DNA from: Calocera cornea HHB12733
Lineage: Eukaryota; Basidiomycota; Dacrymycetes; Dacrymycetales; Dacrymycetaceae
Assembly (NCBI GenBank): GCA_001632435.1
Contig: KV424077.1
Span: forward strand, 1-64,000
Reading direction: 5' to 3'
DNA length: 64,000 nucleotides
Position 1 is the first letter of the stretch, and each line of letters starts with the position of its first letter. The position numbers were made by a program, and so were the translations under genes. Positions 11,456-46,060 of this stretch are shown in pieces. The notes under the pieces are model-generated. The model ran no database searches. It saw nothing but the letters and a program-made list of their open reading frames with translations, and was not told where the DNA came from.

Positions 11456-11555
11456 NNNNNNNNNNNNNNNNNNNNNNNNNNNNNNNNNNNNNNNNNNNNN
11501 NNNNNNNNNNNNNNNNNNNNNNNNNNNNNNNNNNNNNNNNNNNNNNNNNNNNNNN
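11456..11555. other. assembly gap (100 N)
   Basis: Exactly 100 N, the conventional placeholder for a gap of unknown size. It is followed by a run of eight or more G, and lies only 30 bases beyond the stop codon of kinase gene K-A. Confidence 0.99.
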
Positions 11556-11585: not shown

Positions 11586-14270
11586 TTACTCTAGCAGTTC
11601 TCCGAAGGGTCGGCCTTCCCGGTGCAAGTAAGGATCGAAGTCTTGCACTTCCTCGCTGGGAACAACGCCCCATCTTGGTCGCGAGGGATCCACCTTGAGG
11701 CTCCGTCTTTCATTAAACCATCCGATTTCAAGAGACAAGCCTTCGAAGCTTGGCTGTTCCTCGAAGAACTTCTTCCAGGAAGCCCTCCCAATCAGCAGTC
11801 GGTGCAGCGGAGCACCCGCAGCGGCGCGCTCTCGTATGAACGCAACAATTGTTCCCTCGACTGCGGGACTGTGCAGCATGGAATCAAGCATTAAGGTCTT
11901 GAGACTTGGGAGGAGGTTGTTTGCCCCGCCTGCGAAGTTCACTTGCTCCTTAAAAGTGATGCAGTCGATGCTGAGAATCTCTAGGTCCACGAGCGCGCCC
12001 AGAATGAAGCCATCGGTTGCAAAAGGATAAGAACCCCAGCAGTACAGTGTCATTGCCTTTAGTCGTGGCCAATGGCTCAATGTTTTAGAGTCGAGAACCC
12101 TCCTTTGGCTGGAACACGTAGAGAAAAAGGAAAATTCTGTAAGAGGTGCAGCTGAGAGAAATGTCGTTAAAGATTCTGCCGTGGCGGGGTAGGATGTCGT
12201 CAGACGAAACACCTTGAGGTTGGGAAGTTGCGGACTGGATGAAACTGGTTGATCATTGAGCCATGTGCCTTCTTCACTTTTCCTGGAGTCGAGTAGCCCA
12301 GAGACGAAGGGAGAAGACGGCACATCGAATATGGAGAGAGATTCAAGGGCAGGTAACTTGCTTAAAAGCCCGCAGATCTTCGATAATGTAAGGGTTGCAG
12401 GATCACGAGGGTCGCCGTAAATACACGCTCTGAGTACCAGACAGCGCAACCCCCAGGGTGCAAGCCTCCCCAACGCTCTTGGAACAACACCCAGGTGAAG
12501 TTCATCCAGGTCGGGAAGTCGCTTTCGAAGGATCGCAAGGAAGGGAATAGAGCAAACAGGAGGCTCCCCATGGTTGCGTTGCAGCTGCAAGCATTGGAGC
12601 GCGGGTGCTGCAAGCAGACCGACTTCGAGTTGTTCTTCGAACTGTTCCCTGTTTGTATGTGGGGAGATGCCAGTGAGACGAAGGATCTTCATCCCAAGTT
12701 CCTTGAGCGACAATTTGTTCATGTGTTTAACCCAGGAATGTGAGGTATTGGTTGGGGGAATTATGAGGCCAGCTATGCGCGCTCTCTCCCTCCATAGCCT
12801 CGCGGTGGAGATTCTAGCCATACACACTCTCTTGATGTCGAGGAGTGGCCGTTCATATCGAAATTCCTGTATTATGTCTTAGTTGGCGCTTTCTTGTAAG
12901 ACATTACAAACGTACGAGTTCCACTTGAAGAAAGATACTCTGATGAACATCATGCTCCAGCTGCTCCAGAGTGGGTCGCTTCGCCTGTTGGACATCCGAC
13001 CAAGCGTCCAACATCAGCGTCCACCGCTCATCATCTAGGTCCTTGTGGTCATCCGTCGGTCTCTCCGGATTTCTTCCCCCATGAAACACTTCTGCGATGA
13101 CTTCATAATCCGATTTGCCCTTGAAAGGCGGGCAGCCGGTCAAGATCTGTTCCCGCCGTTGAGCTACTGGAACGGCTCTTCAAAGCATGCTGTACCTCGA
13201 AGAACGTACGCGCCATTTCGAAAACGTCACTCTGTGTGGACTTGGAGCTCGAGTGCCGCAGTCCATATCGCACGGGATTGAGTCTTTCAAATGCCAGCCA
13301 TCTTGCATTACCGCTTCCGGCAGTGCTCGTTGTGGCGACGTTCTCCCGCCTTGTAACTTCCATTATTTGTGACAGGCCGAAGTCTGTGAGTCGTGCCGTT
13401 ACCACGCCAGACTGGGCCACATCGATGAGTACGTTGTTCTGAAAAGATGGCTGTCATCATCCATCCCTGTACTCGACAAACGCCCTACTCACGCCTTTGA
13501 GGTCGCCATGCACAATGGGCCCAGAGGGTAAGGAATGGAGGTAAGATACAGCATGTATAATATCGAGTAGCTGCATTCTATGATATCAGCTCCCGTAAAC
13601 GAGTCACTGGACTACTCACGAAGAGTAGACGTGAGCGAGTAGGATGTTCCTTGATGTATTCCATGACGTTTCCACCGGACATCCAGGGCGAGATCATGCA
13701 GAGCTGCGCATATACTCCAGGTCGAATCTTGGACCAGTCCGCGATGCCAAGCAGTGGAACAATGTTGGGATGCTCCAGGCCAGACCAAGTCAACGCTTCC
13801 CGAGCGGAGAGCTGAATATCGTCAGCTGAGTTCAAACGGTGTAGAAGCGACGACACTGACTTCTTGAACACGAACAGGCGGTCTACCGTACTCGAAGAAG
13901 ACCTTAACAGCAACCAGTCGACCACCGGTCAGACGGGTACTAAACACCCGCGCAAACCCGCCTTTATCAGCCGGCAGGTCATCCGGCTGCAGATTGATCT
14001 GTTCGGTCAAGTTGAATGACGCCGGGAAGAGTGCGAACACGTTCGGCAGAGTCCAATCATACGAGCACTACAACAGATCAGCAACATGGAGTGACTTCAG
14101 CTGCTCGGGCATACGTGTGAGTTGCTCTCGTTGCAAGCCAGACAAGCGGGATGACCACCGTCACACACCCGTTTTCTACGGAGCGATGTGCATCAGCTCG
14201 TGCACTGTGCGAAGCAGCAAACAGCTGACCTTGCCCAGCATGAGAGGCACCTCTTAGCTGCGACTTCCAT
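11586..14270 (-). CDS. K-A: Zn2Cys6 - protein kinase - LRR-like fusion protein, 777 aa
   Basis: Eight exons (14270-14230, 14175-14115, 14067-13861, 13811-13620, 13570-13493, 13438-13196, 13146-12916, 12866-11586) join in phase through short GT-AG introns into one 777-residue frame. Residues 8-35 are a fungal Zn2Cys6 cluster with spacing C-x2-C-x6-C-x6-C-x2-C-x6-C (CLSC, ARKRVCDGG, CLAC, then CSYDW). A kinase domain follows: glycine loop DKGGFARVF, VAVK with Lys89, catalytic loop HGDLKGNN with Asp190, DFG with Asp212, WLAFERLNP in place of APE, and RPTLEQLEHDV at the end. The C-terminal 427-codon exon is LRR-like. All catalytic residues are present, so it is probably an active kinase. A DNA-binding cluster on the same chain implies nuclear action; substrate and ligand are unknown. 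It ends FGELLE, like the other copies. Confidence 0.85.
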
Positions 14271-14869
14271 AACAGGTAGAACACTGACTGAAGTGCAAGA
14301 GACGACGTTGGTGGACGGATGGGACGAGACGAGACTCGAGAGATTGCGTCCGGGAACGCGTGTCGACAGAGATAGAAGATCTCGGAATCTCTATTCAATT
14401 GATTGTAGTTGGGGCCCAGGGCGGGAAACAAGCATTTCTGCGCGTTGCTCAACGCCTTGATAAGGCATCCACTACTTCAAGCAAATCACTCGATGGAAAG
14501 TATGATGAGATCAACGTGCGCGTACCCGGCACATGTTCTCCGCAGAGAAAGGAGGTGAGAAACAGGGAATGGGATGCCGACAGTCGTCACCTGTTCTCCT
14601 CTTAACAGCACCGGGCCCGTTATCCATTGCTCGACTTGCGACGACTCTGATGCTTGGGGTGACACCGAACTGGCCCATCCTTGCTTTGGGTAACATATGG
14701 AGATAACAATGGACTGCACATCGTCGGAGATAGACCCACCGTTTGATCAAGCCCACCGCGTCAAAGTACGACGCGTCAGCCAACGCGTCGCGTCAGGAAC
14801 TTGAAGTGCTCCCGCAGCCTCACCGTACTGTAACCATCTCTCGACCTCACTCTTCACCTCACAAGCGTG

Positions 14870-16186
14870 CACGATGTTAACCGTCCACACCCGAACAGAC
14901 CACCGCACCCCATGCGCCAGTTCTCCTCCCTCTCCCTCTCCTCTGCCGATCAGACCACCATCCTCGGCAATATGATCCGACCAGCCCTCCCGCGAGCGAT
15001 GAAGCCCCCACCGCCCGCCCAGACATGCGAATGGCTCCATCGACGAGATGACCCAGTTTGAGCCCAAGGTTCACGAGGAGAGTTGGCTGCTGCTGGGGTA
15101 CAATGGAGCAGTTGGTGGCTGCAAACATTTTGCGTGCGTCCCGTTTTATCCCTTGTAACCCCATGCGACCCAGCGCGGTTGGAAGGTGCACGTCCAGCGA
15201 GCAAGCAGCTGAGAAACATGCGCAGTATACACCAACCCGTTCGAGGTCGCCACCTGACTCGCCGTCGCTGGTATACGGTCATGCTCGTGTCCTGATGCGC
15301 CCTCGTCTGCCGCCCGTGTGGGCGCGGCCCGTTCCCCCTCCCGCGCTAGCGTGCTGTGCCGTTCTGTTCGTGTTCGTTCACGATGAGTGCGTCTCTGTTC
15401 CCATTGTCCGGTTTCCGCTCCACACCCCGGTGCAGCGGGGCGGTATGATCTCATGGGCATGTGCTTACCCCCCCCCTCAGGCTCAACGACGCCTACCTCG
15501 AAGCCAACTTGACATATCCTCGCACAAGAAGACGCGACCGACATCCCCGCGTACTACTCCCGCGCGCCAGCGTCGAGGTCTTGGGTGCTTATCCACTAAG
15601 CAAATATGATTGGATTGGTGCCGGTGGATGCGTACCAGCTTGAGGGGGGACTGAGGAGTTTGGAGGAGTTGGTTACGAGACGGAGGTGGATGGTGACAAC
15701 GAGGACGAGAACAAGGAGGGCAAGGAGGTGACGGAAGACGCTAACGCGAAGAGGGCTCAGAAGGGACAGCAAGGGAAGGACAGTAAGAAGGACGATGGGA
15801 ATAAGCCGGATCATTCGAAGATCTACCGCTCGCCAGCGCCTACCGAGCCTACCGCAGCCCTCGTCCGGCAGCTTCACCTCGACCCAACGTACGGCTCGAC
15901 GTTCATACAGAACGAGCTGCTCACGCACGGGATCTCCCAAGCCGTCACCGTCCCTTCCCTCGAGGTGATCTACCTCAGGTTGTCGAAGCTGACACCATGG
16001 TTGGAGGAGGTGAGCAAGACGATGGGCATGCGCCGGCGAGCGGGGCCGACGGGGGAGGAGCTGGCTAGGGATGTGGGGAGGAGAGGGCTCATGGGCTGTA
16101 GGGAGTGGTACGTCGGTGTGGGGAGGGAGACATGGGAGGAGAGGTACGAGGAGATGAGGGAGATGCATGGACTGTGGACGCAGTAG
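14870..16186 (+). pseudogene. X1: unit X, most complete copy, unknown protein
   Basis: The clearest open part is about 15650-16186, without an ATG of its own, so it is probably the last exon of a longer gene. It encodes an acidic, Lys-rich linker and then KIYRSPAPTEPTAALV, LDPTYGSTFIQNELLTHGIS, LEVIYLRLSKLTPWLEEVSK and a C-terminal GCREWYVGVGRETWEERYEE. An upstream exon near 15030-15130 may encode HANGSIDEMTQFEPK ... ESWLLLGYNGAVGG. I could not splice the whole gene and stops interrupt the 5' half, so I treat it as broken or unresolved. The same sequence returns as X2 (16816-17088) and X3 (20330-22160), each beside a kinase gene, so X and K were duplicated together. The family is not recognised. 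Confidence 0.45.
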
Positions 16187-16344
16187 GAGTGCGCGTGATG
16201 TGCCCGTAGAGCAAAAGGAGGCACGAGATGGTACACCTATTCACTGTAGATAGTGCAGGCAGGGCCTAATGTAAAACTGTCTGTACACATGTAATACGGC
16301 TGCACTCGAATGAATCTTGCACGGCGGCTATCATGAGGTATATC

Positions 16345-16830
16345 ATCTTGCAGGATGTCGTCGGCTGCGCCGCGTAGGGATGGATTCGGTCGATCACGGT
16401 CGGCCCGGTTCAAAACCGCTTCCGCATTCTGTGATGGCCGGTCTTTGGTTCGATTCGGTTGTGACCGGTTTTGAGTGGACGGAAATGAAAGGCTCAAAAT
16501 GTGTTGATCAGTCCTCGCAAGGCAGAAACTTGAAGCTCAAATGATTGTCAGAGATGGCTCAAGTGCATTTTAGGCACTCAAGCGGTATTGGACAACATTT
16601 CCAGGAGATGCGCCGTCCAAAATTGGTCGAAAGTTGGAGAACGGATGGTCTACTGGTGAGAAAAGTTTACGTCATAAGAAAATTTCTATACAATTGATCA
16701 CGTGCTCCGAGAACGCGTTCTAGCCGGTTTTCAGTTTCTGAAATGCCCGGTGCTGGTCTTGGACTGCTCACGGTCTTGAGACCAGACCGAGCACCGCGGT
16801 CTTCGCGGTTCAGTCATGACCGCGGTCGAT
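16345..16830. repeat. CCGGT-rich imperfect palindrome, MITE-like insertion candidate
   Basis: Both ends are dense in ACCGG/CCGGT and CGGTC words with partial inverted symmetry (for example CGGTTCAAAACCGC near 16405, and GACCGAGCACCGCGGTCTTC near 16785), while the middle is AT-richer and non-coding. It lies between the end of X1 and the fragment X2. The ends were not aligned base by base and no target-site duplication was established. Confidence 0.35.
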
Positions 16831-17088
16831 CTCTTAGGAACGTACCTGCACATTGCGTATCTGAGCGTCTCGAAGCTGTTTCTTTGGCTTGAAGAAAGGA
16901 GCAAGACGAGGGGGATGAGAGTGATGAACCAGCCGGATAGAGAGGTGCGGGTGAGGGGTGCGAAGGCAAACCGGCTGATGAACTGTCGGGAGTGGTGCGC
17001 TTGTGTGCGGACGGAGGCGTGTGAGGGGAAATTCAGGGACTGTGTGTCTGGTGGGACTGCGGCTGAGCTGCCGCTGGAAGACGAATAG
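16816..17088 (+). pseudogene. X2: fragment of unit X
   Basis: This fragment matches only the C-terminal part of X1. LSVSKLFLWLEERSKTRGM corresponds to LRLSKLTPWLEEVSKTMGM of X1, and NCREWCACVRTEACEGKF to GCREWYVGVGRETWEERY. The upstream exons are missing and are replaced by the CCGGT-rich block. A short open frame survives to a stop at 17088, but it is most simply a truncated duplicate. It lies 190 bases beyond the 3' end of kinase gene K-B, in the opposite direction. Confidence 0.6.
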
Positions 17089-17275
17089 CGGCAGGTATAA
17101 AGGTGAGTATTGTACATGGGGAGGGGTGTGCAATGCCAGAAACCGTGTGCCATGACCGACCTAGTTGTACAGTGTGGGCGAGTCCAGAATGATGGTTGAT
17201 TGAGAGGAAGACATCATTGAATACATGATGAAGGTGAGCGACTAACAGAGGTCCGTGCAAAGAAAACGATTTCCT

Positions 17276-20025
17276 CTAAAAATATGGTTGGAGTAATTCC
17301 TCGAAAGGCTTTCCTTCCCGCTCCACCCAGGGATCAAAATTGTCTAACTCCGAGTTGGGAACAAGTCCCCATTCAGCCTTGGATTCGGCACAGTCGTCTC
17401 CAAAGACTCCATACGCAGTACCCGGCTTGAACCAACCTATCTCCAACTCCAATCCTTGGAGGCTCGGCTCCATCGCAAATAAATCCTTCCAGACCGCTTG
17501 GTTGATCAGAAGTCGGCGTATTGGAATACCGTAGTAGGCACGAGCTTGCACAAGTCGGGTGATCGTCTCTCCCTCTACACCAGAGTTGGTCATACCCAGG
17601 ATACTGCAGACGATCACGGTCTTCAGACTTGGCAGCACGCGACCTGGATCGATCCCCCAAAAGACCTGGTTAATAATGCTATGTCGATCCAAACTCAGAA
17701 TCTCCAAGGCAGTCAGCTCTGCCACGGCGAACAAATCGATGGCAGAGGGGTGTTTCGTATTGATGCTGAGGCTCCTCAATTTTGGCCAGTAGCTGACAGC
17801 CTTGTCGATAGAAAAGGGTCCCTCCCACCACGAGGGAAAGAATGAGAAACGGGTGAGCCCCTTCTGATATGAAAGCAGCCCCATCAGCGCGTGCGCAGTG
17901 TCTCCGTTCGCAGCCTTCAAAGCAAAGGATTTGAGCTTCAAAAGCTGTGGGCATACTAGTTGATGCTGCCATTCGACTGCCTTCCCAGAGGTAATATCCA
18001 AGCCGAATTTAAGGGAATGTGCGGATCGGCGTGATGCAACAGCGTCCAGAAAGACCTCTTCCAGAACAGGTAGCTGCTCCAAAAGCTGGCAGAGTTTCAA
18101 CAGTGGCCAACTGCAAGGATCTCCGTCATCCTCAAAGATCGCTCGAAGTGCCAGACTTCGCAATAGCCACGGCGAAAGCTGCCCAAAGCATGTCGGGGTG
18201 AGCTCCATCACAAGTGCTTTCAGGGTTGGAAATTGACGTTGAATGACATCCAAGAATCGCAGATCGTGCGTTACCGGTCGGTGAGCCCCCACCAGCTTCA
18301 AATCTTCAACAGACGGAGCTGAGCGCAGAACGGCTTCTAGATGTTCCGTACTCTCGTACATATCGATGTCAGTGATCCGTAAGGTAGCCAGACGAAGCTC
18401 ATAGAGTGACAGATCTTGCATGCGTTTGAACCATGGCTCATTTGTTGAGCAGATGGGCACCGTTATGCCCTGCATAGGCGACCTCTCTTTGAGCAGTACG
18501 AGGATCCGCTGAGAGGAAACGCCAATCTTGCACAAACGTTTCATGTCTATATATGAGCTTCCGTCCAGCTGTGACGTCTGGAGAATTTTTGATTCAGCGC
18601 CCTTGTGGTAGGATATGGACAACGTACCAGTTCGTTTATCATGCTGTTCCAAACACCATACTCCACCTGTTGCAGTGATGCCCGTTTCTCCGGTACGTTC
18701 GACCAACAGTCCAGCATCAACAACCACTGGTTGTCATCCAGACCGTCACAGCCACCAATCGGCCTGTCTGGATTCATGTCCTGAAGCACGTAGTTGATGA
18801 CTTGATACTCCGTCTTCCCATGAAAGGGTGCTGCACCCGTTAATATCTATTTACAAGGCGTAAGACACTGGTGAGGGGGTGATCCACGGAGACAACAAAC
18901 CTCGAAGAACGTGCGCATCATCTCAAAAATGTCGCTCAGTGTTGACTTTGCGGTCGATAGTTGAAGTCCATATCGTGTGGGATCGAGGCGCTCGAATGCC
19001 AGCCATCTTGCATTGCCGAGACCGGTCGTGCTGGTGGTGGCGAGGTTATGTCGGTTCGAGAGGTCGATTATTTGTGAGAGCCCAAAGTCAGTGAGCTGTG
19101 CTGTTACTTTGTCATCCGGTTCAACATGGACGAGAATGTTGTTCTGAAGACATATGTATCAGAGAATTTTTCTCGCAGTACTTTGAGTCCACAAGAACTA
19201 ACCCCTTTCAGATCACCATGTACAATTGGGCCAAATGGGAGCGAGTGAAGGTAGTCAACTGCGCGAACAATGTCGAGCAACTGCGAGAGCGAGTCATCAG
19301 CGATATAGGCATAACGTTCGGGTGTGCTTACCCAAGGTAAACGTGAAACGGTTGGGTGATCTTGGATGTAGTCCATTATGTTTCCGCCCGACCTCCAGGG
19401 AGATACCATACAGAGTTGCTCGGATCCACCACGACGAATTTTACGGTAATCGGCAACTCCAAACAGAGGCACAATGTTGGGATGGTCCAGACCGGACCAA
19501 GTCAGTGCCTCTCGTGCGGAAAGCTTAAATGCCCTGTCAGTTGCCATCTCGTGTCTCGCATGTTTATGCCCACTTACTTCAAGAGCTCGCTCCGGCGGTC
19601 TTCGGCCATCAAAGAACACCTTGACGGCAACCAACTCATCCTCCACCGTCCGTGTCCGGTAGACTTTAGCGAATGCACCGTGGCTGACCTCCTGGGCGGT
19701 GCTCGAGAGTCTGACGCGCTTGTTCATATTGGACGAGGCGGGAAAGAGCTTGAGCACATTTGACATGGTCCAGTCATAGGTGCAAGGCTAGGGTCCGGTT
19801 ACGGTCAGAAATATACATGAATTCCACAGGCTCACATGCAATTTCTCCCGTCGACAAGCCTTACAACGTGGTCGAGTGCTATCGCACAGTCGCTTCCTTT
19901 GAGGATTGACTGTGAGTGGAAGTTCCGTATGGGCACGGCACAGCTCACCTTGCTGAGCAGGCAAGGCACTTCGAGACGTCTGGAACCTCTGCAGGGCCAT
20001 CCATAATATCCATCATGACATCCAT
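17276..20025 (-). CDS. K-B: Zn2Cys6 - protein kinase - LRR-like fusion protein, 793 aa
   Basis: Eight exons (20025-19949, 19896-19836, 19787-19578, 19523-19332, 19280-19203, 19143-18901, 18846-18628, 18577-17276) splice in phase to 793 residues. The start ATG has context ACCATGG. Residues 20-48 form the Zn2Cys6 cluster C-x2-C-x6-C-x6-C-x2-C-x7-C (CLAC, ARKRLCDSTRPRC, KAC, PCTYDW). The kinase has VAVK Lys102, HGDLKGNN Asp203 and DFG Asp225, with WLAFERLDP and a terminal RASLQQVEYGV. The last 434 codons are LRR-like with repeated L-x-x-L-x-L patterns. Exon lengths 61, 192, 78 and 243 equal those of K-A and K-C, which supports the intron calls. The exon 6 donor is GTTTGT, a weaker site. The protein is probably a nuclear kinase; its target is unknown. 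Confidence 0.85.
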
Positions 20026-20329
20026 GGTTCAACGAATAACTCAGATGATCAATGTTAGAGAAAGCCCTTTCCGTAGATGGACGTGTAGAATCAAGGTGCA
20101 AACGCGTTCAGGGACCTGGGAATGATTGGTCGGATGTGATCGATTGAGCCGGGAGCTTGCAAGGCAGGACAGCCTCCAGCCTTGATCTGGCACAGCTAAA
20201 GTCGACCGGATGAATGTCCTGTCGTCGGAGCACCGCCCATCTGATCAGAGTGCACAGAACCGTTGTTGTTTACGGTGACAGGTATAGCCGTGCTTAGCGG
20301 AAAAGGCGGAACCGCTATCGCCGCGTGCT

Positions 20330-22160
20330 GAGTTGGCTCACAGCTGGCAGCGTCGTCAGTGCTCACCCCAATCCTCACCTCACCGGTCACTACCGCACAC
20401 GCCATCCGATCTCCCCTCTCGGCCAGACCGCACTTGCCTCATACTCTCTAGCTCTCCCCTCTATAACACTTACCTTGTGCTTCATCTCCCATCCGCTTCT
20501 GCTGCTTCCCAGGCAGCGTCGCAACCCCTCCAATCGCCGGCTTCGCACTCCCACCACCAATGCCAGCCCAAGCAGCGCCGCAACTCTGAACGGCGCAAGA
20601 CCACAATGCATTCCTCGGACGTGGCCAATCGACCACTGCCTTCAACCTCAACCGAACACCCACGATCCCGGCCAGTGTCTAAGTTCCCGCCGACGGACTC
20701 GACACCCGCCATCATGCACAGACATTACACATGCGCAAGTGCGAACCAACCCGTCTGAAGGGGGTTAGGTTGATGCTGGGGTACGGTGTCATGCAGTGGT
20801 TGCGGTGATGAACATCCTACGTACGTCGTTCTCTCCCGCCTCTGCCTGCTCCCCGTGCCAACTGGCTGGTGCACGCCGCACCATCACCCCCTGGCCAGGC
20901 GGGCAGGCATTCGGTTGTGCACCCATCGCTGATGCGACCTCACAGCGTAGACTGACGCCTGCACAATCCAGGCATACGTATGCGCTGCGGCCGTATTGAA
21001 CATCTTCATGGCGTTTGGGGCATTGTCGGTTGGCCTTGGTGGGGACTGTAGTCCATGCCTCACCGCACAAGCGAGCTATAGGATGCCGTTCCTGTTCGCC
21101 ATTTATTGATGCGTGGTATAACCTTCCGGCTGCCCCAGATGTAGTACATGTCGGGGCGGTGTGATCTAGTGCGCATATGCTGACCCGCTGGCAGGTCAAC
21201 CGCCAGTACTTCATTACATCACCGGGGGCGATTTCTCGCGATCGACACCATCGATAGCCACGCGTACGACACGCACACACCGCGGTTCCGTTTGTCGATG
21301 GCGACATAGACGAGCAATCCGATTGATGTCGTCGTGCCGGACAGGCACCGGCGGAAGGCGGGCCGATGAGGCTAGAAGAGCTGGTTGGAGGCACGGAGGT
21401 GTAGGGGGATGACGGAGAGGAGAAGGCAAGAAGGGCGAAAAAGGAAGAAATTGGGCGAGCAGAACCTCCACTACAAGCCAGATCTCACGGGCGTGTGGCC
21501 CCTTACGGGTGGCGCCAGGGGGGAGAGTAGCCCATACCTCACTGCGCTCGCGAGTAGCAGGATGCTGTTCCTGTTCTTCATTGGATGGTGCGTATCTTGC
21601 CGTCCAGCTGCCTCAGATGTAGCACATGGCTTAGCGGTGTGATTTAGAGTACATATACTGAGCCCCTCGCCAGGTTAACCGCGTTTGCTTGAAGTGAGCA
21701 AGGGGCGCGGCTCGTGGCGATAGACACAATCGATAACTGCGTACCAACCACACACACCGCGATGCGGGTTCTGCACACAGGCCTAGAATGCCTCGATCAC
21801 GTCACTGCGCTGGAACCGCACGGGCTGGGCGTGGGGCTGAAGAGCGTGACCAGTTGGTTAGAACACGAAGGTGGAGGAAGATAAAGGTGAGGACAAGAGA
21901 CGAGCAAGAACGGATGAAGACGGATGAGCAGAAGTTCGATTACAGCAAGATCTCGCATCCTCCCTCGCCTCTCTAGCTCAAGCTGCACCCGTCACTTCCA
22001 CCTCGACACGTTCTTCGGTCCCACCTCTATCCAGGACAACTTGGTCAAGCATGGAGCTGACAAGGCTGTCGAGGCACCATCAATACGCACGATCTGCTTC
22101 ACCATACCGGAGCTTTCCGTTCACTCGACGTTATCCCAACAACGGGGATGAGGAAGTAGA
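20330..22160 (+). pseudogene. X3: degenerate copy of unit X
   Basis: The 3' end matches X1. LDTFFGPTSIQDNLVKHGAD (about 22005-22065) corresponds to LDPTYGSTFIQNELLTHGIS, followed by APSIRTICFTIPEL for PSLEVIYLRLSKL. Near 20770 VRLMLGYGVMQW parallels SWLLLGYNGAVGG of X1. Stops interrupt every frame between these blocks. Inside it, about 21040-21250 and 21500-21760 are two copies of one segment (both contain GGATGCTGTTCCTGTT or a close variant followed by the same splice-like stretch), so part of the unit was duplicated again. It is probably dead. It separates K-B from K-C. Confidence 0.5.
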
Positions 22161-22369
22161 GGAGCTGGAGGAGTAGCTAGTGCTGAACGTGAAGTGGAGG
22201 GGTTTGAATGTGTGTGAATATTCGGTACTTACTTTGTATGCTTCAAAGAATCTTGATAAGCTTGATAAGACACTGGTCACGCGCAGGCTGCATTCAGAGC
22301 GAGAGAGTATCGGGTACAACAATGGACGAGCGTTTAATGGCATATGAACTGGTATGGTCTCTTACATTG

Positions 22370-25059
22370 CTACATTAGCTCTTCGAAGGATCTTGACCTC
22401 CCCTTTGGTACCACATTGGGATCGAAGTCCTCTATCTCGGACATGGGGATAAGCCCCCATTCTGGCTCCCAGCGATTATTAAACCCGGCTGTCCCAGCCT
22501 TATTTTTATACCATCCGAGCTCCACCTGCAGACCTCGGAAGCTGGACTCTATGCTGAAGAAGTCCTTCCAGGTCCGTGGGTGAATTAAAAGTCGAAGTAG
22601 CGGGATACCGGTAGCGGCACGGGCTTGTACAAAGCTTACAAGAGTGCTCTCGGGCGCAAAGGTGCCATTGCCCATCTCGCGAATCATCAAGGTCTTCAGA
22701 GTGGGCAGTAGTAGCATGCCGAGCCCCTCCCCCAGGATGGTCTGGTTGAGAAAGGTACAGCGGTCCACACGGAGTATCTCCAACGAGGTTAACTCCTTCA
22801 GAACGAAGGTGTGGATCGTATATCGAAAATCTGTCTTCATGGTGAGAAACTTCAATCGCGGCCAGTAACGAGCCACGCTGCTGGCAAGATGTTCTTCCTC
22901 CACTATCGCTGCACTGAGGGCCAAGTGTACGAACCGCGCCTTTGAAAATATTCGCATCAAGGCGTGTGCCGTGCCAGGGCTACATGGTGTAGTAAGACTG
23001 AGAGATTTCATACTCGCAAGTTGCGGGGATGGCAAGTGATGATGTCGAGCATTTGCCTTGCTTGGAGCGGTCGGCAAAGAAGCTTGAAAAGAGTGGGCCT
23101 GTCCTGCTGAAGGCGTGGCATCCATAAAGACTTCTTCTAGACCTGGCAAATGGAGTAGAAGGTCGCCGAGCTTCCACAACGACCAGCTGCAGGGGTCTGC
23201 ATCTTCTTCAAAACTCACATCGAGGGACATACTGCGCAACCCCCATGTCGACAGGCCCTCGACGGTTGCAGGACTCGGAACTCCTCTCATGATAAGTGTC
23301 TTCAGCTTGGGGGCCCGTCTTTGAATGATTTCCAGGAATGGTAGTCCAGTGATAACAGGTCGGTTACCGCCATGTAGTATCACGGACTCAACAGACGGGG
23401 TCGACAGGAAAATTGCGTCCAGATCATGATGCTCCTCCCACTTGTAGTGGCCAATGTCGGTGAGCCAAAGGTTTGTGATAGGGAGCTCGTGGAGGGGCAA
23501 AGTCTGAAAATATTTGGCCCAGGGCTCGTGTATGTCGAGAAAGGGGATTATGACCCCAGTTATACGCGGCTTCTCTTGCAAAATTCTCCTTGGGGGGGTG
23601 CTGAGTTTTCCAAGGTATTTCAGGTCCAGATATCGTGTACCATCGGCTGTCTGAAATACATGTTATATGTCGTATGTGTGGCATTGTGCAGTCACATTAC
23701 CACGTTATCTTCCATGTAGATGCTCTGCTGAATATCTTCCTCCACCTGTTGCAAAGACGGTCGTTCTTGGGCCCGTATATCCGACCAGCAGTTTAGCATA
23801 AGGGACCATCGATCGTCATCCAGACCGCCACAGTTACCCGTCGGTCTTTCCGGATTGATGCCCTGGAACACATCCACAATGACTTCATAATCTGGTTTCC
23901 CCTGGAACGGCGGCGCGCCGGTTAAGATCTGTACTGGTCGTGAGGCAACCTCCAAGATGTTCTTTAGAATAGGCCATACCTCCAGGAAAGTGCGCATCAT
24001 TTCGAAGATGTCGCTCTGCCTCGACTTTGCACTCGAGGGTCTCAATCCGTATCCGGCTGGATTCAGTCGTTCGAACGCAAGCCATCTGGCGTTACCATTC
24101 CCCGCCGTGCTAGTGGTGGCGATGTTATCTTGCCTTGACACGTCCATCATTTGCGCCAAGCCGAAATCTGTAAGCTGCGCTGTTGGAAAACCATACTCGT
24201 CCATCTCAATGAGAATATTGTTCTACAATGATCATTGTTAGCAGTTGGTGCTGCATGCAGACAAACGACTTACTCCCTTCAAGTCTCCATGTATAACTGG
24301 TCCAGATGGCCGGGAGTGAAGGTACAAGACAGCATGCACGATGTCGAGTAACTGTCCCGGATTAGATTTGTGAGTTTGGGGTAGAGTACGGATTCCGCTC
24401 ACCCAGGACAGGCGGGAAACATTTGGATGGTCTTTGATATATTCCATGATGTTTCCGCCCGACATCCAAGGTGCCACCATACATAGTTGTGAGAAGCCGC
24501 CGGGGCAGATCTTGGCGTAATCGGCAACTCCGAGAAGGGGAACGATGTAGGGATGAGAAAGACTGGACCAGATCAATGCTTCTCTCGTGGAAAGCTGAAC
24601 ACGGTATCAGGCGACGTTCGGTGTCTCCCAGCTAAGTGCTCACTTCAAGAGCTCTCGTCGGTGGCCTTTTGTGATCAAAGAAGACTTTGACGGCAACCAA
24701 CTCGTTCCTCGTTGTGTGCGTACGATAAACTCTAGCGAATGCGCCCTGGTCGACTTGCTGTGCGGTACGTTCGAGGACCAGCTGTGCATTCATGTCGAAC
24801 TTTGCTGGGAAAAGCTTGAACACATTCGGCAGAGTCCAGTCATAGGAGCACTAGGAGGGGCTCAACCAGGGCTATACCCAACCACCCAAAACTTACGTGC
24901 GATTTATGCTCGCGACAAGCACTGCAGGTCGGCTGTACGCCGTCGCATGTCATTTTACTATGAATGGGTTGCCTTGAATTCAACCCTGACGCACGGTGAG
25001 GACGACACAGCTCACCGCGTGGAGCATGATAAGCAGCTGGGTACGTCTGGGGAATCCAT
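22370..25059 (-). CDS. K-C: Zn2Cys6 - protein kinase - LRR-like fusion protein, 777 aa
   Basis: Eight exons (25059-25016, 24957-24897, 24850-24644, 24594-24403, 24351-24274, 24222-23980, 23928-23701, 23650-22370) splice in phase to 777 residues, the same length as K-A. The Zn2Cys6 cluster is at residues 9-36 (CLSC, TRKMTCDGVQPTC, SAC, then HCSYDW). The kinase has QGAFARVY, VAVK Lys90, HGDLKGNN Asp191, DFG Asp213, WLAFERLNP, and RPSLQQVEEDI near residue 340. The junction to the LRR-like half (exon 7 to 8) is in frame (EDNV-TADGTRYLDLK), so kinase and repeat are one chain. Leu-rich units run to the end (RSRSFEELM). No signal peptide or membrane segment is seen. It is probably nuclear; partner and substrate are unknown. 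Confidence 0.87.
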
Positions 25060-25676: not shown

Positions 25677-28080
25677 CTAGCTTTCTACCATCTCAGACCC
25701 TCCCAGTCGTGCCTAGGAGTGGAGTAAGCGACTGAACTCGTAACATGGCGTTCATTGCTCACCTTCTCTAATACCGCCTTCCTCTTCTCCCTAGCCTTCC
25801 TCTGTACCTTCATCCACTTCCCTATCGGGCTGTCGGCAACGTCTATTGAGGACTGGAAATGTTGAACGTCGCTCCTATCGGCAGGTCCGAAAGACACGCC
25901 CGACCGCTTCTTCTCCATCCACTTCGAGTGGTCCTCAAGTCGCTCAACGAGAGGCTTGAAGGTCGACGTGAGCTTCTGACTGTTCGTCTTCTTCATCGTT
26001 CGGCGAACCAAGATCGTGACAGGTACGGCGAGCTCTGGGAAGGCGATGCTATTTCCAGCGGTCGCAAACCAAGCGCCGAGCAAGTAGGCGCATTCGTCTG
26101 CCAGCGCCTCTTGATAGAGTCGCGTCCGGAGATATGGTGCCGGTACACGGATGAAGATCTCCAGATCTAGCGGTCGCTGTGTTGAGGGCTTCGGTTTGTG
26201 CGAGAACTCGGATGAGGTGATGATTTGGAGGATGAAGGGCGAAAGCGGCACGAACACGCCGGTGTGCCGAATGAGGTGCAGTAGTGATCGTAGGCAATGG
26301 AGGTGGAGGGGGAAATAGCGGGGTGTAGGAATCAACCTGTAGCCGGTCAGGGTATTGTCACGAGGGCGACGAATATGACTTACTTGATAGCGCCAATAGT
26401 AACCTGCACGAGCGGGTAGATCAGCGCATGGAGTGCGCTCTCCTCCCCACTAGCCGCCTGCGCATCCTTGTCGCAAGCCTTGGCGAGCACGATTGACCAG
26501 AAGTCGAGCGAGTGCACGTACTGCCAGTTGTAGACAGCCTTGTACGCCTCCTTGCTCTTGACCTTCATGCTCTCCCGCAGGTGGATCGCCAGCTGACGGA
26601 TGTACCGGAACGCATGCTGGTACGCCGCCTCGTGGTCGATCATGTATATCTCCGATGCGGAGTTTTTCATCAGGTTGATGGAGGGGAGGGTGTGGATGGT
26701 CGTGGATCGAGATGAACGGACGAGCGAGACGTATGTCCCTTTCAGGCACATGTCGAGGATGCTCTGATCTTGGCTGGCAGCAAGTCGGCGGATCGCAAGG
26801 AGAGCCGTCATGCGAGTGTCATCTGTCCCGCTTGACCAGAGCTCGAGTAGCAGCTTGAGGTAGTCCCTGACGACCTTGCGGCTCGAGACGATGTAGGGGA
26901 TGACCTTTGCCGAGTCGGACAGGACGAGCACCTTCATATCACCGTCCGGCAGCTGCTCGAGAAGATGCAAGATGTTGTTGAAGTACGACAGGATCATCTT
27001 CTGGAGCGTGGCGTGCTTCTTGTTTTGTGCGGGAGGTTTGCTGTGCATGACGATTAGCAGTAGCTCTCAGACCAAGGTGGCGAGACTTACTATCGCCCAT
27101 CCGGCAATGTTTTGTAGGGGAGATGATGGGACAGCACAATCGGTGTATACTTGAGCGCAGTGACAACCAGCTTGTTGAACACTGAATACGCCGTCAGGGG
27201 TATGTACTGGTGGGAATACGGGAGGTGACGCACCTGACGAGCTGCCTATCGAGTATGCATACTCAGAACCATCCTCCTCGTTCATATGTGCAGCAGCACG
27301 GAAGGCCAAAAGCATCCTTCTCAAAGACCGCAATGACCGATGCTATCGACAGAGTTCAGCAAGAGTGAAGCTGTGTTCGGGGATACAGACGCACCTCAAG
27401 AAGAGCCTTCTGCCATGCCCGCAACATCTCCTTCGTCACCTCCTTGCCTGCCGGTGGTGCGACAGGTCCCTCCTCTTCGATCTCCTCCGCCTCCTCATCA
27501 TCAGCCATCTCCTCATCCTCACCGTCATCCTGACCCTCGTCCTCCTCAACCTCATTTCCGAACTCGAGCAACTCCTTGTCGTTTTGCTGGAGGTACTTGT
27601 AGAACTCGGGATCCGTCTCCTTCAGTCGCTCAAGGTCCATCTTGTGCGCCTCTTCATCTCCCTCGAGCTCATCCACCGATGCAAATGACTGGTCATCGTC
27701 GACTTCGTCTTCCTCCCCTTCCTCTTCTTCGTCGGAGTCGCCACCTTCGGGTGCATCGTCGCCGTTCATGAAGCCTGCGCCAAGGAAGTCGTCGACCGTC
27801 ATTCCGTTCAGCCTATCTCATGTCACACCATGTCCATTCGGATACTACATATGACGCACTGATCATCATCATCATCCCCAGCGCCCTTCTTCGCATCGTC
27901 GTCCTCATCATCGTCGTTCGCCGCTTCCTTTCCCTTGCCGTTCGTCCGACCCTTGCCTGCAGGTCCCTTCCGCTTCGCGATGACCTGCTTGACCTTGCGC
28001 TGCTTATGCCTCTGCTCAATCTGCTGCTTTAGCTTGCCAGACGAGATGAAACGCTTTGTCGCTTTTGTTGTTTTCGCCAT
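25677..28080 (-). CDS. NOC2: nucleolar complex protein 2 (NOC2)
   Basis: NOC2 works with NOC1 or NOC3 in the nucleolus and nucleoplasm to mature and export pre-60S ribosomal particles. The start ATG at 28080 opens a basic N terminus (MAKTTKATKRFISSGKLKQQ) followed by long acidic runs. Exon 2 carries LNGMTVDDFLGAGFM and LKETDPEFYKYLQQNDKELL. Later exons encode VFNKLVVTALKYTPIVL, QKMILSYFNNILHLLEQLPD, then AYNWQYVHSLDFWS-type sequence typical of the NOC2 core, and LIPTPRYFPLHLHCLRSL. At the end, splicing a GTGAGC donor to a CTCCTAG acceptor gives EKARLGGSEMVES and a stop at 25679-25677, which fits better than reading through to 25685. Introns are short and in phase where checked. A fragment of its 5' end reappears at 41570-41717. 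Confidence 0.92.
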
Positions 28081-29852: not shown

Positions 29853-32639
29853 ATGGATGGAGAAGCGGTCAATGACTGCATAGCGTGTGGTGTCAGGTAT
29901 GTCCGATGCGGTCGAACCCACATGGCTTTGCTGAATCAAGCCGAGCAGGAGATACCGATGCGATCGCGGCAATCCCATCGTGCTCCTTATGCATAAGAGA
30001 TTAAAGAGAGGTGTGCTGCCTCACAAGTCGCTGTGGGCTGCAGCCTGACAACCGGCTACAGTGCTCCTACGACTGGACGTTGGGACCTCACATCTATCGA
30101 CTGTTCGGTCAAGATGGACCGCTGACCGACTATGTGGAGCCGATTAAGGACCCGTCGAAAACGTTCATTGGTGGATTCGGGCGAGTCTACAGAGCTACCT
30201 TGACCGAGGGAGGCCGCCAGAGGTGGTTGCATGATGGAGATCAATACGGCGATGTTACCGTCAAAGTCCTCCATGAGTACAAATGGAGCGCTTCTCGGAG
30301 TCTAATGGTGCGCCCCCATTGTGCCACTGCACGTTGATCACCCTTATTCATGATCCTGAAGCTTGCCTTGCGTGAAGCTTGGGCGTGGTCCCAGCTGAAG
30401 CATAAGAACGTGGCGCCCTTCTGGGGTATCGCCGATTGCCAGTATCTGTATGCTGGAGCGCCGTCGCAATTCTGTATGCTATCTCCCTGGGCATCTCTCG
30501 GAAACGCGGAAGAATTCTCTAAAAATGTCAGAACACGTTGTACCGATATCCCTTCGTGAGTGGCACGCGCTCGACACCCTCAGAAATGAGGTCTCAAGGA
30601 CTCAGCAGATGCTTGACATCGCTCGCGGACTTCAGTACTTGCACAGCACAACACCAAACCCAATTCTCCATGGCGATCTGAAAGGCGTGAGTGACGCTTA
30701 CCTGCAGCCGTGCCGCTCTCCTGATCGTCATTCCAGAACAACATTCTCGTTAGAGCGGATCCCGTTGATCTGATGCCTCGGGCGCAGCTGTGTGATTTCG
30801 GCCTTTCAGGAATGGCAACAGAGATGGACAGCAATCTTACCACGACAAGTACGGTTTTTAATGGAGATGCACGCTGGTTAGCCTGGGAGCGAATAGACCC
30901 CGAACGCTACGGGATCCCACGTGCGGCCGCGGCTATGACCACCGCCAGCGATGTTTCTGAGATGATGCGAACATTCTGGCAGGCATGGGTTTCCCGCAGC
31001 TTTGTATGCGGTCCTCTCACGTCATGTTAGATCATGAAAGGCAAGGTTCCATATCATGGGCGAAATAACTTCCAGGTTCAAGCGCATATACATAACCAAC
31101 AAAATCCAGATCCACCTACCGATTCCACTTGGGAGAATATGCTGCTGTGGCACGCGATGAAACAATGTTGGAGCCCACAGCGGGAAGATCGGTATGACTG
31201 CGGAACGGTGATGACCATCTTGGAGTATTTGTTAATGCTTCAAACTTATGGGGTGCGCATTTTGACAGCATATCTTAAATGGCGTCTGACAATTGTTAGA
31301 GAGGCCCTGAGTCCTCTATCCTAGCCATCAGCGCCTACATTCGCAAAGAGGTCGAGATTGTCGCTTTGTCGAATCAATGGGCTACTTTCCGAACGGATCG
31401 CTTACGGACTACACTGCCAGAGCTTCCGGCCCTAGACCTTAGTTTGGTTGGCAACGGCTTACGAAGCGGATCCCTGTCCCACTTTGCCCAGTTATCTCCT
31501 CCATCATCGTGGTGGACATTACGCCTAGACTCTGAAGATCCGGGATCCATCCACTATGGCAAGCAGTCGTTGTACGGAAGGCTGTTGAACCTGCGGAACC
31601 TGCATGTTCGGTCGCTCAACGGGCAACCGGGCCCGCCGGAGCCACGACCACCGTTTCTGCCGCAACGAGGGCCGGACTTAGCCCCTGTTCTTCAGGTGCT
31701 GCGCATGGAACAACAGCCCCTGCATTGGTGGACGTATCGGTTTCCACGATTGAGGACTTTGTCTATTCTGTATGACCCGGAGCAGTTGGCACCTGTCGAT
31801 TCGCAATGGCAGAACTTCTTTCGGGCTTGCCCCGTACTCAACCGGCTTGAGCTCATCGATCTTCGCACGATCCCGACTGTGGCCTCCCATTCTCCCACGA
31901 AGATCCCACATATGGACCAACTTGAGTTCCTTCAGATGGGTGATATTACACCGGAGCGCGTTTCCTATCTGGTTCAAACCATGCGAGTTCCAAAGCTGGA
32001 GGACCTTTTCCCGGAGCATATGAGCGACGGGGCTGTCGAGCGCTTGTTGTCCCCTAATCAGCTCCCCCCTTTCCGCGGGCTGACTCTGATCCATCTGGAC
32101 TGCGACACCAGCACCCTCCGTCGGCTTTTCCAAGTGTTCCACACCATCGAAAAGCTCAGTCTCCTCCACCTTGATGTCGTCCTCGAGTCCTCATTGCGGA
32201 AGACAGCAGCCGAGCACGGGACGACCGTGTCCTCCCCCCCTGCGTTACATCCGAGTCCTTGGCTACCCGGGGTATGTGCTGGAGAATGTGCCCTCGGCCG
32301 TGCGAGGCTTGGCAGCCCCCTGCGGCAGATTCGCACCACGGCTGCCTGTTTCGCCTGGCCAGAGTGCGGCTGGTATCCCCGGCGCGGCGGGCGGAGGCGG
32401 AGGCGGAGGCGCGCCTGCGCACCTACCTTGGTGAAGCGATATTATATGCGCTGGGCACGGAGACGGGCATGCGGTGGTTGGGGGACCTCAAGGGGGTCGT
32501 ATTCGGCGGAAGAGGTTCGGGCAAGGAGTCAAGGAGTCCAGGACGAGCGCCCTGCAGGTGGCTTGTGGGAAGGCGTGTCCCGGAGAGATTGCTCGCATGT
32601 CCTCCAGATCAGACCCTAGGTTCGTTCTGGGATGAAGCA
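29853..32639 (+). pseudogene. K-D: decayed divergent Zn2Cys6-kinase-LRR gene
   Basis: The layout follows K-A to K-C. A start exon (29853-29896) has CIAC. Exon 2 (29949-30010) contains YRC then C-S-L-C, but these lie in different frames because the exon is 62 rather than 61 bases, and a TAA follows. Exon 3 has CSYDWTL, GGFGRVYRAT and VTVK. Later exons have HGDLKGNN, DFGLSG, WLAWERIDP and QCWSPQREDRYDC, then an LRR-like half from 31366. Further damage: the donor after exon 4 (TTCGTGAGT) is out of phase, the donor after TFWQ is GC rather than GT, and a run of C at 32231-32239 coincides with a frame change in the LRR-like part (frame 2 continues LRYIRVLGYPGYVLE). These lesions together argue for a pseudogene. 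Sequence is closer to K-E and K-F than to K-A to K-C. Confidence 0.75.
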
Positions 32640-44505: not shown

Positions 44506-46060
44506 TCACGCAAACCCCAGGAGCCGGTTCGCCTCGCGCAGCAGGTCCTTCTCGCCCTTGGGCGCGCTCTCGTCGATCGGGAAGGGCGCAAAGCCCATCG
44601 CACGCTTGCCCTCCTCGGAGAGGATGTCCTCCTCGGTTGCCATGAGCGCGAACCCGGTCTCGGGCTTGATGTCCTTGCCGTAGTCGGGCGGCGTCGCACC
44701 CGTCTTGAAGGCCTCACGCTGGCGCGCCAGGTAGGACGCATTGCGCAGCGTCATGGGGCAGGCGGGGATGTACATGACGGACGAGTCGGAGGGGCCGTTG
44801 TGCTCCTCCTCGACGGCGTGGATGACATCTGCTTTCGGCTCAGCACATCCGCACACGGTAGGTATGTATCGATAGTCGCTACGCACCACAATGCCAGAAG
44901 ACCATGTCGCCCGGCAGCACGCGCGGCATGCACGTCATCGTGTCGTTCGTCCGGAGATGCGGGTGCGTGTCCTCGTTCAGCCGCATGCTCTTGGTGGGCA
45001 TCAGCCCAGGGTAGTGCGCCGTGTCCGGGTCGTACTCCCAGTTCTCGACCTGCATCGGGTCCAGGTCGGGCGACCGGAGGCGGAAGAAGGGGCGGAGCAC
45101 GACGTAGGCGTTTGACAGCTGCACGTTCGGGAACACTTTGAGCGTGCCTTCGCCAGGGCCGGTGTTGGACATGGCCAGCCAGCCTTGCCAGGAGCGGAAG
45201 ATGCTCGACTGGGATCCGGATCATTCTCATCAGCTGCTGGGAAGCAGGATGAAAGTGAGTGGGGACGCACCTGACCAGGCCGCTTGTGCATATTGTTCTC
45301 CGCCGGGATGCGCCCATCAACGACAAACGGATCATGCTCCCTCCACTGCCCCTTGAGCACGCTCGCAAAGCAGCTCCTCAGGCTATCGTCCGCCCACCGC
45401 TCGATCTTGGCCCCGTCGATGTGCGGCGGGTGGGCCTTCCACACCGGGTCGGTGCGGATGCGGAAGCGGTCGGCGTACGAGACGGGCGTGGAGAAGGAGA
45501 TGAGCAGGTTCGGGTCGCGCGGCGTCGTCCAGAGCGCGTTGAGCGCCTTGGTCACGGCCATCACGTTCGCGTCTGAGCGGGCTTGCACTTGGGACTTGGA
45601 CCAGCTGTGCGCGGTCAGCGCCTGGCCCGGCCTGTAGGAGGAGAGACGCGAGTACGCACTACATCTGGAAGAACTGCTTGTCGCCCTCGGGGAAGCCGTC
45701 CACCTGGGGGTTGGCCTTGATGTACTCCCTGAGCATGGCCTTCCACTTGAGCGCCTGCTCGTCCTCGACGACGTTGTGGACGACGACGCTGCCGACCTTC
45801 CTGATCGCGTCCTTCTGGGCGTCGGTGAGCGTGCCGAGGTCGGCAAAGTCCACCTCGGGGATGATGCTCGGGCCCTTGGCGAGGATCTCGTCGTGGGCGG
45901 CGGCGAGGGAGTGGATGAGGTCCGCCCAGCACGCCTTGATCGCCGCCTCGTCCGCGGGGTTGACGATGGCGCGCTTGAGCGGTGTGCCGTACTCGGGGTC
46001 GAAGGTGGCCTTGTCGGCCTCTGCGAGCCGTTCAGCGCGGGAAGGGGGAACGTCACCCAT
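44506..46060 (-). CDS. DUF1479 protein, probable Fe(II)/2-oxoglutarate-type dioxygenase
   Basis: The DUF1479 family (YbiU-like) has a double-stranded beta-helix fold like Fe(II) dioxygenases; its substrate is not established. The start is MGDVPPSRAERLAEADK at 46060. Recognisable parts are GSVVVHNVVEDEQALKWK, YIKANPQVDGFPEGDKQFFQ joined by an intron to WSKSQVQARSD, then HPPHIDGAKIERW, SCFASVLKGQW, GEGTLKVFPNVQLSNAYVVL, and LPGDMVFWHC followed by an exon with DVIHAVEEEHNG. The H-x-D and later H residues fit the metal site of this fold. The C terminus ends ANRLLGFA. About 480 residues, the usual length. Introns are short with GTGCGT-type donors. Confidence 0.88.

What the first reader, a model, noticed from the sequence alone, without database searches (positions are those of the whole stretch)
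11586..25059. A tandem family of Zn2Cys6 - kinase - LRR-like fusion proteins
Three adjacent minus-strand genes each splice, in frame, into one chain. Each chain has a complete C6 zinc cluster (C-x2-C-x6-C-x6-C-x2-C-x6/7-C), a kinase with VAVK, HGDLKGNN and DFG, and about 430 residues of leucine-rich repeats. Seen directly: phase-compatible introns at identical positions in all three (exon 2 = 61 bases, exon 4 = 192, exon 5 = 78, exon 6 = 243) and total lengths 777, 793, 777. Zn2Cys6 proteins and kinases are each common in fungi. I do not know of a described family that fuses both to an LRR-like half. Inference: a nuclear kinase brought to DNA by its own cluster, with the LRR half as sensor or adaptor, possibly part of a fast-evolving recognition repertoire.
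Basis: partly seen in the sequence, partly recalled or inferred. Interest (0 to 1): 0.88.

Follow-up and report, generated by a model that had tools for sequence, protein, structure and literature searches.

The report
Zinc-cluster kinases with swappable sensor ends
A jelly fungus carries a large clustered gene family that joins a DNA-binding-type zinc cluster and a protein kinase in one chain, with differing tails such as leucine-rich repeats, which suggests a fast-changing set of sensors that may act directly on chromatin.

Summary
The window is Calocera cornea HHB12733 (Dacrymycetes). Genes A, B and C splice exactly as described; B is letter-for-letter a deposited protein. Each encodes a Gal4/HAP1-type zinc cluster, a TKL-type kinase and a predicted LRR solenoid. 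They belong to a family of at least 24 loci on three contigs, including a fourth member (D) here with a disrupted cluster. Cluster plus kinase is the constant core; tails vary: LRR, divergent leucine-rich (one with an EH domain), long and helical by eye, Fungal_trans in one probably decayed copy, or none. Relatives occur in C. viscosa and in an unnamed protein with two SH3 domains. Between paralogues A and C83_113733 the halves have different histories (sharp breakpoint in exon 6), and the LRR half has dN/dS about 0.8 against 0.2 for the kinase. The six cysteines and a basic pair that in Gal4 contacts DNA are mostly kept. Most likely these are DNA- or chromatin-tethered kinases with changeable sensor tails. 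DNA binding, location, activity and ligand are inferred, not shown. Ten paper searches found no description of this fusion.

The parts
11586..14270 (-). Gene A, 8 exons, 777 aa: zinc cluster (exons 1-2), kinase (exons 3-7), LRR half (exon 8)
   Evidence: splice model; Pfam
14115..14270 (-). Gene A exons 1-2 with intron 1: six-cysteine zinc cluster split by a phase-2 intron (sixth Cys opens exon 3)
11586..12866 (-). Gene A exon 8: LRR half
   Evidence: fold by relation to the gene C model
17276..20025 (-). Gene B, 8 exons, 793 aa; identical to deposited protein P0001 (Calocera cornea kinase-like protein)
   Evidence: AF2 model
22370..25059 (-). Gene C, 8 exons, 777 aa; found in the protein database only as a partial kinase (P0127)
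22370..23650 (-). Gene C exon 8: LRR half, predicted LRR solenoid
29853..32619 (+). Gene D, fourth member: kinase with HGDLKGNN and DFG; zinc cluster loses frame after the third Cys (by eye); leucine-rich-looking C-terminal frame 31300-32619
13196..13250 (-). Approximate recombination breakpoint in exon 6 of gene A, relative to paralogue C83_113733
15037..16328 (+). Companion gene X between A and B, with a copy beside C83_113733; not part of the kinase chain

Best explanation
A Calocera family of TKL-type kinases that carry their own Gal4/HAP1-type zinc cluster. SHOWN by sequence: one open chain with cluster, conserved linker (C-S/T-Y-D-W ... LF) and kinase, followed by an exchangeable tail; at least 24 loci; tails differ between subclades; in the pair A/C83_113733 the LRR half changes faster than the kinase half and has a different history. 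INFERRED: the cluster holds two zincs and binds CGG-type DNA half-sites, probably without the usual coiled-coil dimer, so the kinase sits on chromatin; the tail senses a partner or ligand; binding releases the kinase to phosphorylate Ser/Thr on chromatin-bound or transcription proteins. Tandem duplication and gene conversion renew the LRR tails like a recognition repertoire, while the helical-tail members do a more conserved job.
For: Six Cys aligned in 26 of 28 rows; at the places of Gal4 Lys17/Lys18, R in 26 of 28 and R/K in 24 of 28 (the Gal4 contact role is recalled). The zinc-part profile matches HAP1/CYP1 (E 1.1e-5), RSC3, Cep3, GAL4, LAC9 and PPR1 in the PDB. Pfam Zn_clus passes in 15 of 23 loci scanned. 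Catalytic Lys in 28 of 28 rows, catalytic-loop Asp in 25 of 28, DFG in 27 of 27 with letters. The three rows without that Asp, in one clade, also lack a complete basic pair, against 2 of 25 others. One member's tail is a Fungal_trans domain (E 6.8e-9). LRR dN/dS 0.79 against kinase 0.19 for A/C83_113733, and 0.41 against 0.13 for B/C83_108506. Introns 1-5 of A/C83_113733 differ at 99 of 245 sites, introns 6-7 at 1 of 98. Separate C. cornea and C. viscosa groups in the LRR clade, a close cross-species pair (P0004 locus and P0008) in the helical clade (quick tree).
Against: No transcript, binding, localisation or activity data. No coiled-coil dimer element was seen by eye after the cluster. The zinc part is modelled below pLDDT 50. 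Gene B's cluster and 7 more of 23 scanned loci score below the Pfam cut-off. Some copies look decayed (C83_10634, C83_108506, D). dN/dS 0.79 can be relaxed constraint, and for A/B, A/C and B/C the LRR ratios are only 0.21-0.31 (kinase 0.12-0.16 where computable) at saturated dS. The zinc part of B/C83_108506 has ratio 0.51. The Fungal_trans member needs a weak splice donor because of an in-frame TGA, and lacks the alphaC Glu. The basic-pair/pseudokinase link is one clade, so one event.
Confidence: 0.45

Rival explanations
1. Cytoplasmic receptor-like kinase. The zinc cluster no longer meets DNA but is a structural, metal-sensing or protein-docking module next to the kinase N-lobe; the LRR or other tail senses a ligand and the kinase signals in the cytoplasm, as RIPK-like or receptor-like cytoplasmic kinases do.
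For: A conserved 'YDW ... LF' linker joins cluster to kinase and no dimerisation helix was seen by eye; SH3 tails in P0006 and an EH domain in C83_29961 usually have cytoplasmic partners (the usual place is recalled); the kinase is closest to MLK kinases and TNNI3K in the PDB by sequence; HGD instead of HRD (non-RD, a class recalled as common in innate immune kinases).
Against: The cluster mostly keeps a basic pair that a purely structural module would not need, and matches DNA binders best; one relative carries Fungal_trans.
Confidence: 0.3
2. A transcription factor under its own kinase. The protein is a zinc-cluster regulator in which the kinase and tail form a built-in switch, and the output is transcription rather than phosphorylation of other chromatin proteins.
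For: Fungal_trans tail in C83_33200; cluster of the HAP1/GAL4 kind.
Against: Pfam finds no middle homology region in A, B and C; only one, probably decayed, member has it. Activation regions were not tested.
Confidence: 0.15
3. A decaying, mostly non-functional kinase array kept by recombination, with no cellular role for the fusion.
For: Several copies look broken: C83_10634 has two stops and a frame break, C83_108506 a frame break and, by eye, a lost splice acceptor, D a disrupted cluster.
Against: Purifying selection on the kinase (dN/dS 0.13-0.19) and on the zinc part of A/C83_113733 (0.27), though 0.51 for the zinc part of B and its decayed partner; conserved Cys in 26 of 28 rows.
Confidence: 0.07
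4. Annotation artefact: the zinc exons are chance open stretches in front of ordinary kinase genes.
For: Deposited models of some paralogues lack the zinc exons (P0122, P0125, P0127).
Against: 22 of 24 loci beat all 60 permutations; the predicted proteins P0001, P0002, P0004, P0006, P0121, P0123 and P0130 include the cluster.
Confidence: 0.02

Closest known systems
Gal4/HAP1-type Zn2Cys6 transcription factors (PF00172)
   Same: Six-cysteine spacing, R/K-rich stretch between Cys2 and Cys3, Asp/Asn after Cys3, Pro before Cys4, N-terminal place
   Different: Fused directly to a kinase; no coiled coil seen by eye; a middle homology domain was found in only one, probably decayed, member
Agaricomycete TKL expansions and the FslK lineage (PMC2838846, PMC3937382; passages read)
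   Same: TKL-type kinase core and lineage-specific expansion in basidiomycetes; the nearest non-Calocera fungal homologues listed are such kinases
   Different: The main texts hold no occurrence of 'zinc'; the family rows form a clade apart from the three agaric rows used; membership in FslK was not tested
F-box/LRR proteins (FBXL2, FBXL17, TIR1, D3)
   Same: Fold of the LRR half
   Different: No F-box found by Pfam in A, B, C; the LRR is attached to a kinase
Plant LRR receptor kinases, receptor-like cytoplasmic kinases and NLR repertoires (recalled)
   Same: LRR with kinase, clustered paralogues, fast LRR change
   Different: No NB-ARC found by Pfam, transmembrane part not tested; kinase lies before the LRR; zinc cluster at the front
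Fungal NLR-like receptors (recalled; only titles and abstract starts seen)
   Same: Repertoires with a conserved core and exchangeable domains
   Different: Core is zinc cluster plus kinase; no nucleotide-binding domain found by Pfam in A, B, C

Membership tests
Zn2Cys6 zinc cluster (PF00172) | C-x2-C-x6-C-x5-9-C-x2-C-x5-9-C | tested here: met
   Complete by pattern in 20 of 24 locus models; all six Cys aligned in 26 of 28 rows
Zn2Cys6 zinc cluster (PF00172) | Score over the curated Pfam cut-off | tested here: met
   15 of 23 loci scanned pass; A and C pass, B (16.7) does not
Zn2Cys6 transcription factor | Sequence-specific DNA binding | not testable with these tools
   Only the basic pair and the PDB profile match
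Zn2Cys6 transcription factor | Middle homology region (Fungal_trans) | tested here: not met
   Absent by Pfam in A, B, C; present in 1 of 10 C-terminal frames scanned, C83_33200
TKL / protein kinase | Lys, alphaC Glu, catalytic-loop Asp, DFG | tested here: met
   A, B and C have all; alphaC Glu in 23 of 28 and catalytic Asp in 25 of 28 rows; Pfam; fold
TKL / protein kinase | Catalytic activity | not testable with these tools
   none
FslK lineage (PMC3937382) | Falls inside the FslK clade in a kinase tree | not tested
Leucine-rich repeat protein | LRR solenoid fold | tested here: met
F-box/LRR protein | F-box domain | tested here: not met
   No F-box family in Pfam scans of A, B, C at E up to 1
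Receptor kinase | Transmembrane segment between sensor and kinase | not tested
   No predictor run; the order of domains is the reverse

The most novel reading that the evidence does not exclude
A fungal repertoire of chromatin-anchored receptor kinases: a zinc cluster posts each kinase at DNA sites, and duplicated, converted and exchanged tails (LRR, helical, EH, SH3) give each copy a different trigger, so recognition and phosphorylation take place on DNA in one molecule.
Probability: 0.25. Interest if true: 0.92.

Novelty: new variant of a known kind. Interest (0 to 1): 0.74.

Why it matters
Sequence-specific DNA-binding domains and protein kinases normally sit in separate molecules. A clustered family that joins them, with tails that change, would give a direct route from recognition to chromatin and a testable model for how a jelly fungus senses partners, neighbours or stress. 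It is also a family that public annotation partly hides, because the short exons of the zinc cluster are missing from several deposited models.

Tried and rejected
Artefact of gene modelling: rejected. Allelic copies of A/B on C83: rejected, because the 14 matches of 80 bases or more between window and C83 are at most 2.8 kb long at 66-81% identity. An F-box origin of the tail by sequence: the LRR profile search found one protein, P0159, which is the tail of member C83_81078 held as a separate protein with an 'F-box domain-containing' name; inconclusive. LRR change by secondary structure gave 29% of loop, 22% of strand and 19% of helix positions changed, no clear pattern. Companion gene X gave no Pfam family (two frames). 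Seven kinase loci on C219, C231 and C238 turned up in the spliced scan without a cluster and are not counted. Literature: ten searches listed no paper on a zinc cluster fused to a kinase; PMC2838846, PMC3937382 and PMC5415576 were read by passages only: the first two have no occurrence of 'zinc', the third none of 'kinase' in the main text. Only open-licence papers were searched and no supplements were opened, so an earlier mention cannot be excluded. Presence in other Dacrymycetes was not established either way: the homologue search scores about 8000 candidates and lists 120 of 388.

Rows dropped: C83_10634 from the conservation table and from the Pfam zinc scans; six fragmentary C. viscosa rows (P0003, P0124, P0126, P0131, P0132, P0134) and six of nine outgroup rows from the tree. 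The 24 loci are those above score 2200 on C83 1-120000, C158 30001-69274 and the window; C83 120001-135528 and C158 1-30000 were not read, so the count is a lower bound.
Full report
What is there. The window is part of contig C164 of the held genome. Gene B is letter-for-letter the deposited protein P0001, a 'kinase-like protein' of Calocera cornea HHB12733, a dacrymycete. Pfam finds a kinase in all three, and Zn_clus over its cut-off in A and C but not in B. No Pfam LRR family passes, but gene C exon 8 folded alone gives an LRR solenoid (mean pLDDT 74, five sequences in the alignment), whose best structural matches include F-box/LRR proteins, NLR LRR domains, LRRC8 and RNA1/RanGAP. In the model of gene B the kinase is confident while residues 1-48, the zinc part, are below pLDDT 50, so the model says nothing about how cluster and kinase sit together.

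The family. A genome search with the cluster-plus-kinase part found related exons on many contigs; the matches that cover zinc part and linker together with the kinase lie on C83, C158 and C164. A search with Zn_clus alone, exon by exon, leaves the split clusters of this family below the cut-off. I wrote a small spliced aligner and scanned the fetched stretches: 24 loci, 16 on C83, 4 on C158 and 4 in the window. Seven kinases on C219, C231 and C238 showed no cluster. The fourth locus in the window is D, plus strand 29853-31318, whose cluster loses frame after the third Cys (by eye). The first two introns are phase 2 (inside the cluster) then phase 0 in 23 of 24 profile-guided models. As a control I permuted the zinc columns of the profile 60 times for each locus: 22 of 24 loci beat every permutation; C83_10634 and C83_12233 do not. 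Four of the 24 fed the profile; without them it is 18 of 20. Of 23 loci scanned with Pfam, 15 pass the Zn_clus cut-off.

Conservation. In 28 rows (23 loci and five relatives) all six Cys are kept in 26, while the other cluster positions are on average 25% identical and the kinase 46%. The pair aligned with Gal4 Lys17/Lys18 is R in 26 of 28 and then R/K in 24 of 28. A profile of the zinc part finds HAP1/CYP1, RSC3, Cep3, GAL4, LAC9 and PPR1 in the PDB. The kinase keeps its Lys in 28 of 28 rows, alphaC Glu in 23 of 28, the catalytic Asp in 25 of 28 and DFG in 27 of 27 with letters. The three rows without the catalytic Asp belong to one clade and lack a complete basic pair (RA, RM, QN); two of the other 25 lack it too (RQ, SK). 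Counted as rows this is Fisher p 0.003, but it is one clade, so one event.

Tails. Of the 24 loci, by BLAST, Pfam and reading: seven have an LRR half of the A/B/C type, five a more divergent leucine-rich half (C83_29961 adds an EH domain, E 2.7e-13), three a leucine-rich-looking frame without a BLAST match to the references, three a long half like that of P0004 (no Pfam family passes there; helical by eye), one a Fungal_trans domain (C83_33200, E 6.8e-9), and five no convincing tail (downstream frames under 190 aa without a match). The Fungal_trans case is weak as a working fusion: it needs a poor splice donor because of an in-frame TGA, and its alphaC region is lost. P0006, an unnamed JGI protein on a 1.8-kb contig and so probably metagenomic, has the core and two SH3 domains. 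In a quick kinase tree the family rows form one clade apart from three agaric kinases; the three helical-tail loci group with C. viscosa relatives, one pair (the P0004 locus and P0008) being very close, whereas in the LRR clade five C. cornea and three C. viscosa rows form separate groups. So the core predates the species split and the LRR branch turns over.

Exchange of halves. A and C83_113733 are sisters in the tree. Upstream of about position 13250, introns 1-5 differ at 99 of 245 aligned sites; introns 6-7 differ at 1 of 98. In 50-codon windows synonymous differences are 0.46-0.72 up to residue 250, then 0.06-0.30 (0.33 in the window across the break). This is a recombination or gene-conversion boundary inside the kinase. 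In the LRR half dS is 0.18 and dN 0.14 (ratio 0.79), in the kinase 0.64 and 0.12 (0.19), in the zinc part 1.32 and 0.36 (0.27). For B and C83_108506 the ratios are 0.41 (LRR), 0.13 (kinase) and 0.51 (zinc), with dS 1.4 in LRR and kinase and one decayed partner. For A/B, A/C and B/C dS is saturated; LRR ratios are 0.21-0.31 and kinase 0.12-0.16 where computable. The LRR half is under weaker constraint or partly under diversifying selection; these data do not separate the two.

Distribution and annotation. The homologue searches list C. cornea, C. viscosa and a few unnamed proteins, then ordinary kinases of Suillus, Rhizopogon, Ceratobasidium, Mycena and others at about 30% identity. In the precomputed Pfam column, partly cut off in the print, Zn_clus shows for P0002, P0006 and P0130 only (120 of 317 and 120 of 388 listed). 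Some deposited models miss the zinc exons or cut the gene: P0122 and P0125 lack the cluster, P0127 is a piece of C, P0159 is the tail of C83_81078.

How it most likely works. Shown: architecture, conservation, family size, tail exchange between subclades and half-swapping in one pair. Established for the parts: Gal4-type clusters bind CGG half-sites (recalled), LRR solenoids commonly bind partners (recalled), and A, B and C have the catalytic residues. Inferred: the cluster tethers the kinase to DNA and the tail gates it. The main rival is that the cluster has become a docking or structural module of a cytoplasmic kinase. I put the DNA-tethered kinase at 0.45 and that rival at 0.3.

Novelty. 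Both parts are common in fungi; the fusion as a clustered family was not described in the papers that I could search (passages). I class it as a new variant of a known kind (TKL expansion) with an unusual front end.

Noticed in passing
window 15860-16183 (+), 16843-17037 (+), 21987-22151 (+); C83 116744-117061 (-), 123815-124132 (+): Companion gene X: five matches in the genome (E up to 0.01), three in this window and two on C83; three lie tail-to-tail with a kinase gene (B, C, C83_113733), the last about 7 kb further on in a stretch not read. No Pfam family in two frames tried; by eye the C83 frame looks like a membrane-anchored GNAT acetyltransferase.
   Followed up: partly
C83:33200-35931 (L024:3200-5931): A family member whose tail is a Fungal_trans domain, with a damaged kinase alphaC region and an in-frame TGA before the usual splice donor.
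   Followed up: partly
C83:29961-32872 (L024): A member whose leucine-rich tail ends in an EH domain, PF12763 E 2.7e-13.
   Followed up: partly
C83:10634-20955: Five short members without a convincing tail; three of them lack the catalytic Asp and a complete basic pair in the cluster, i.e. zinc cluster plus pseudokinase.
   Followed up: partly
window 11586-13250 (-) against the C83 113733 paralogue: Introns 6 and 7 are 100% and 98% identical while exon 7 is 94% and exon 8 86% identical: nested conversion tracts, or exons changing faster than introns.
   Followed up: partly
window 3888-4787 (+): CxC2 cysteine cluster associated with KDZ transposases (PF18803, E 9.3e-35), probably a mobile element beside the array.
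   Followed up: no
window 26383-27066 (-): Noc2 family gene (PF03715, E 1.8e-56), next to gene C.
   Followed up: no
window 45004-46140 (-): Frame with a Gig2-like match (PF07350, E 1.5e-30).
   Followed up: no
window 11456-11555 and 56871-57253: Runs of N; the first lies 30 bases after the stop of gene A and does not cut it.
   Followed up: no
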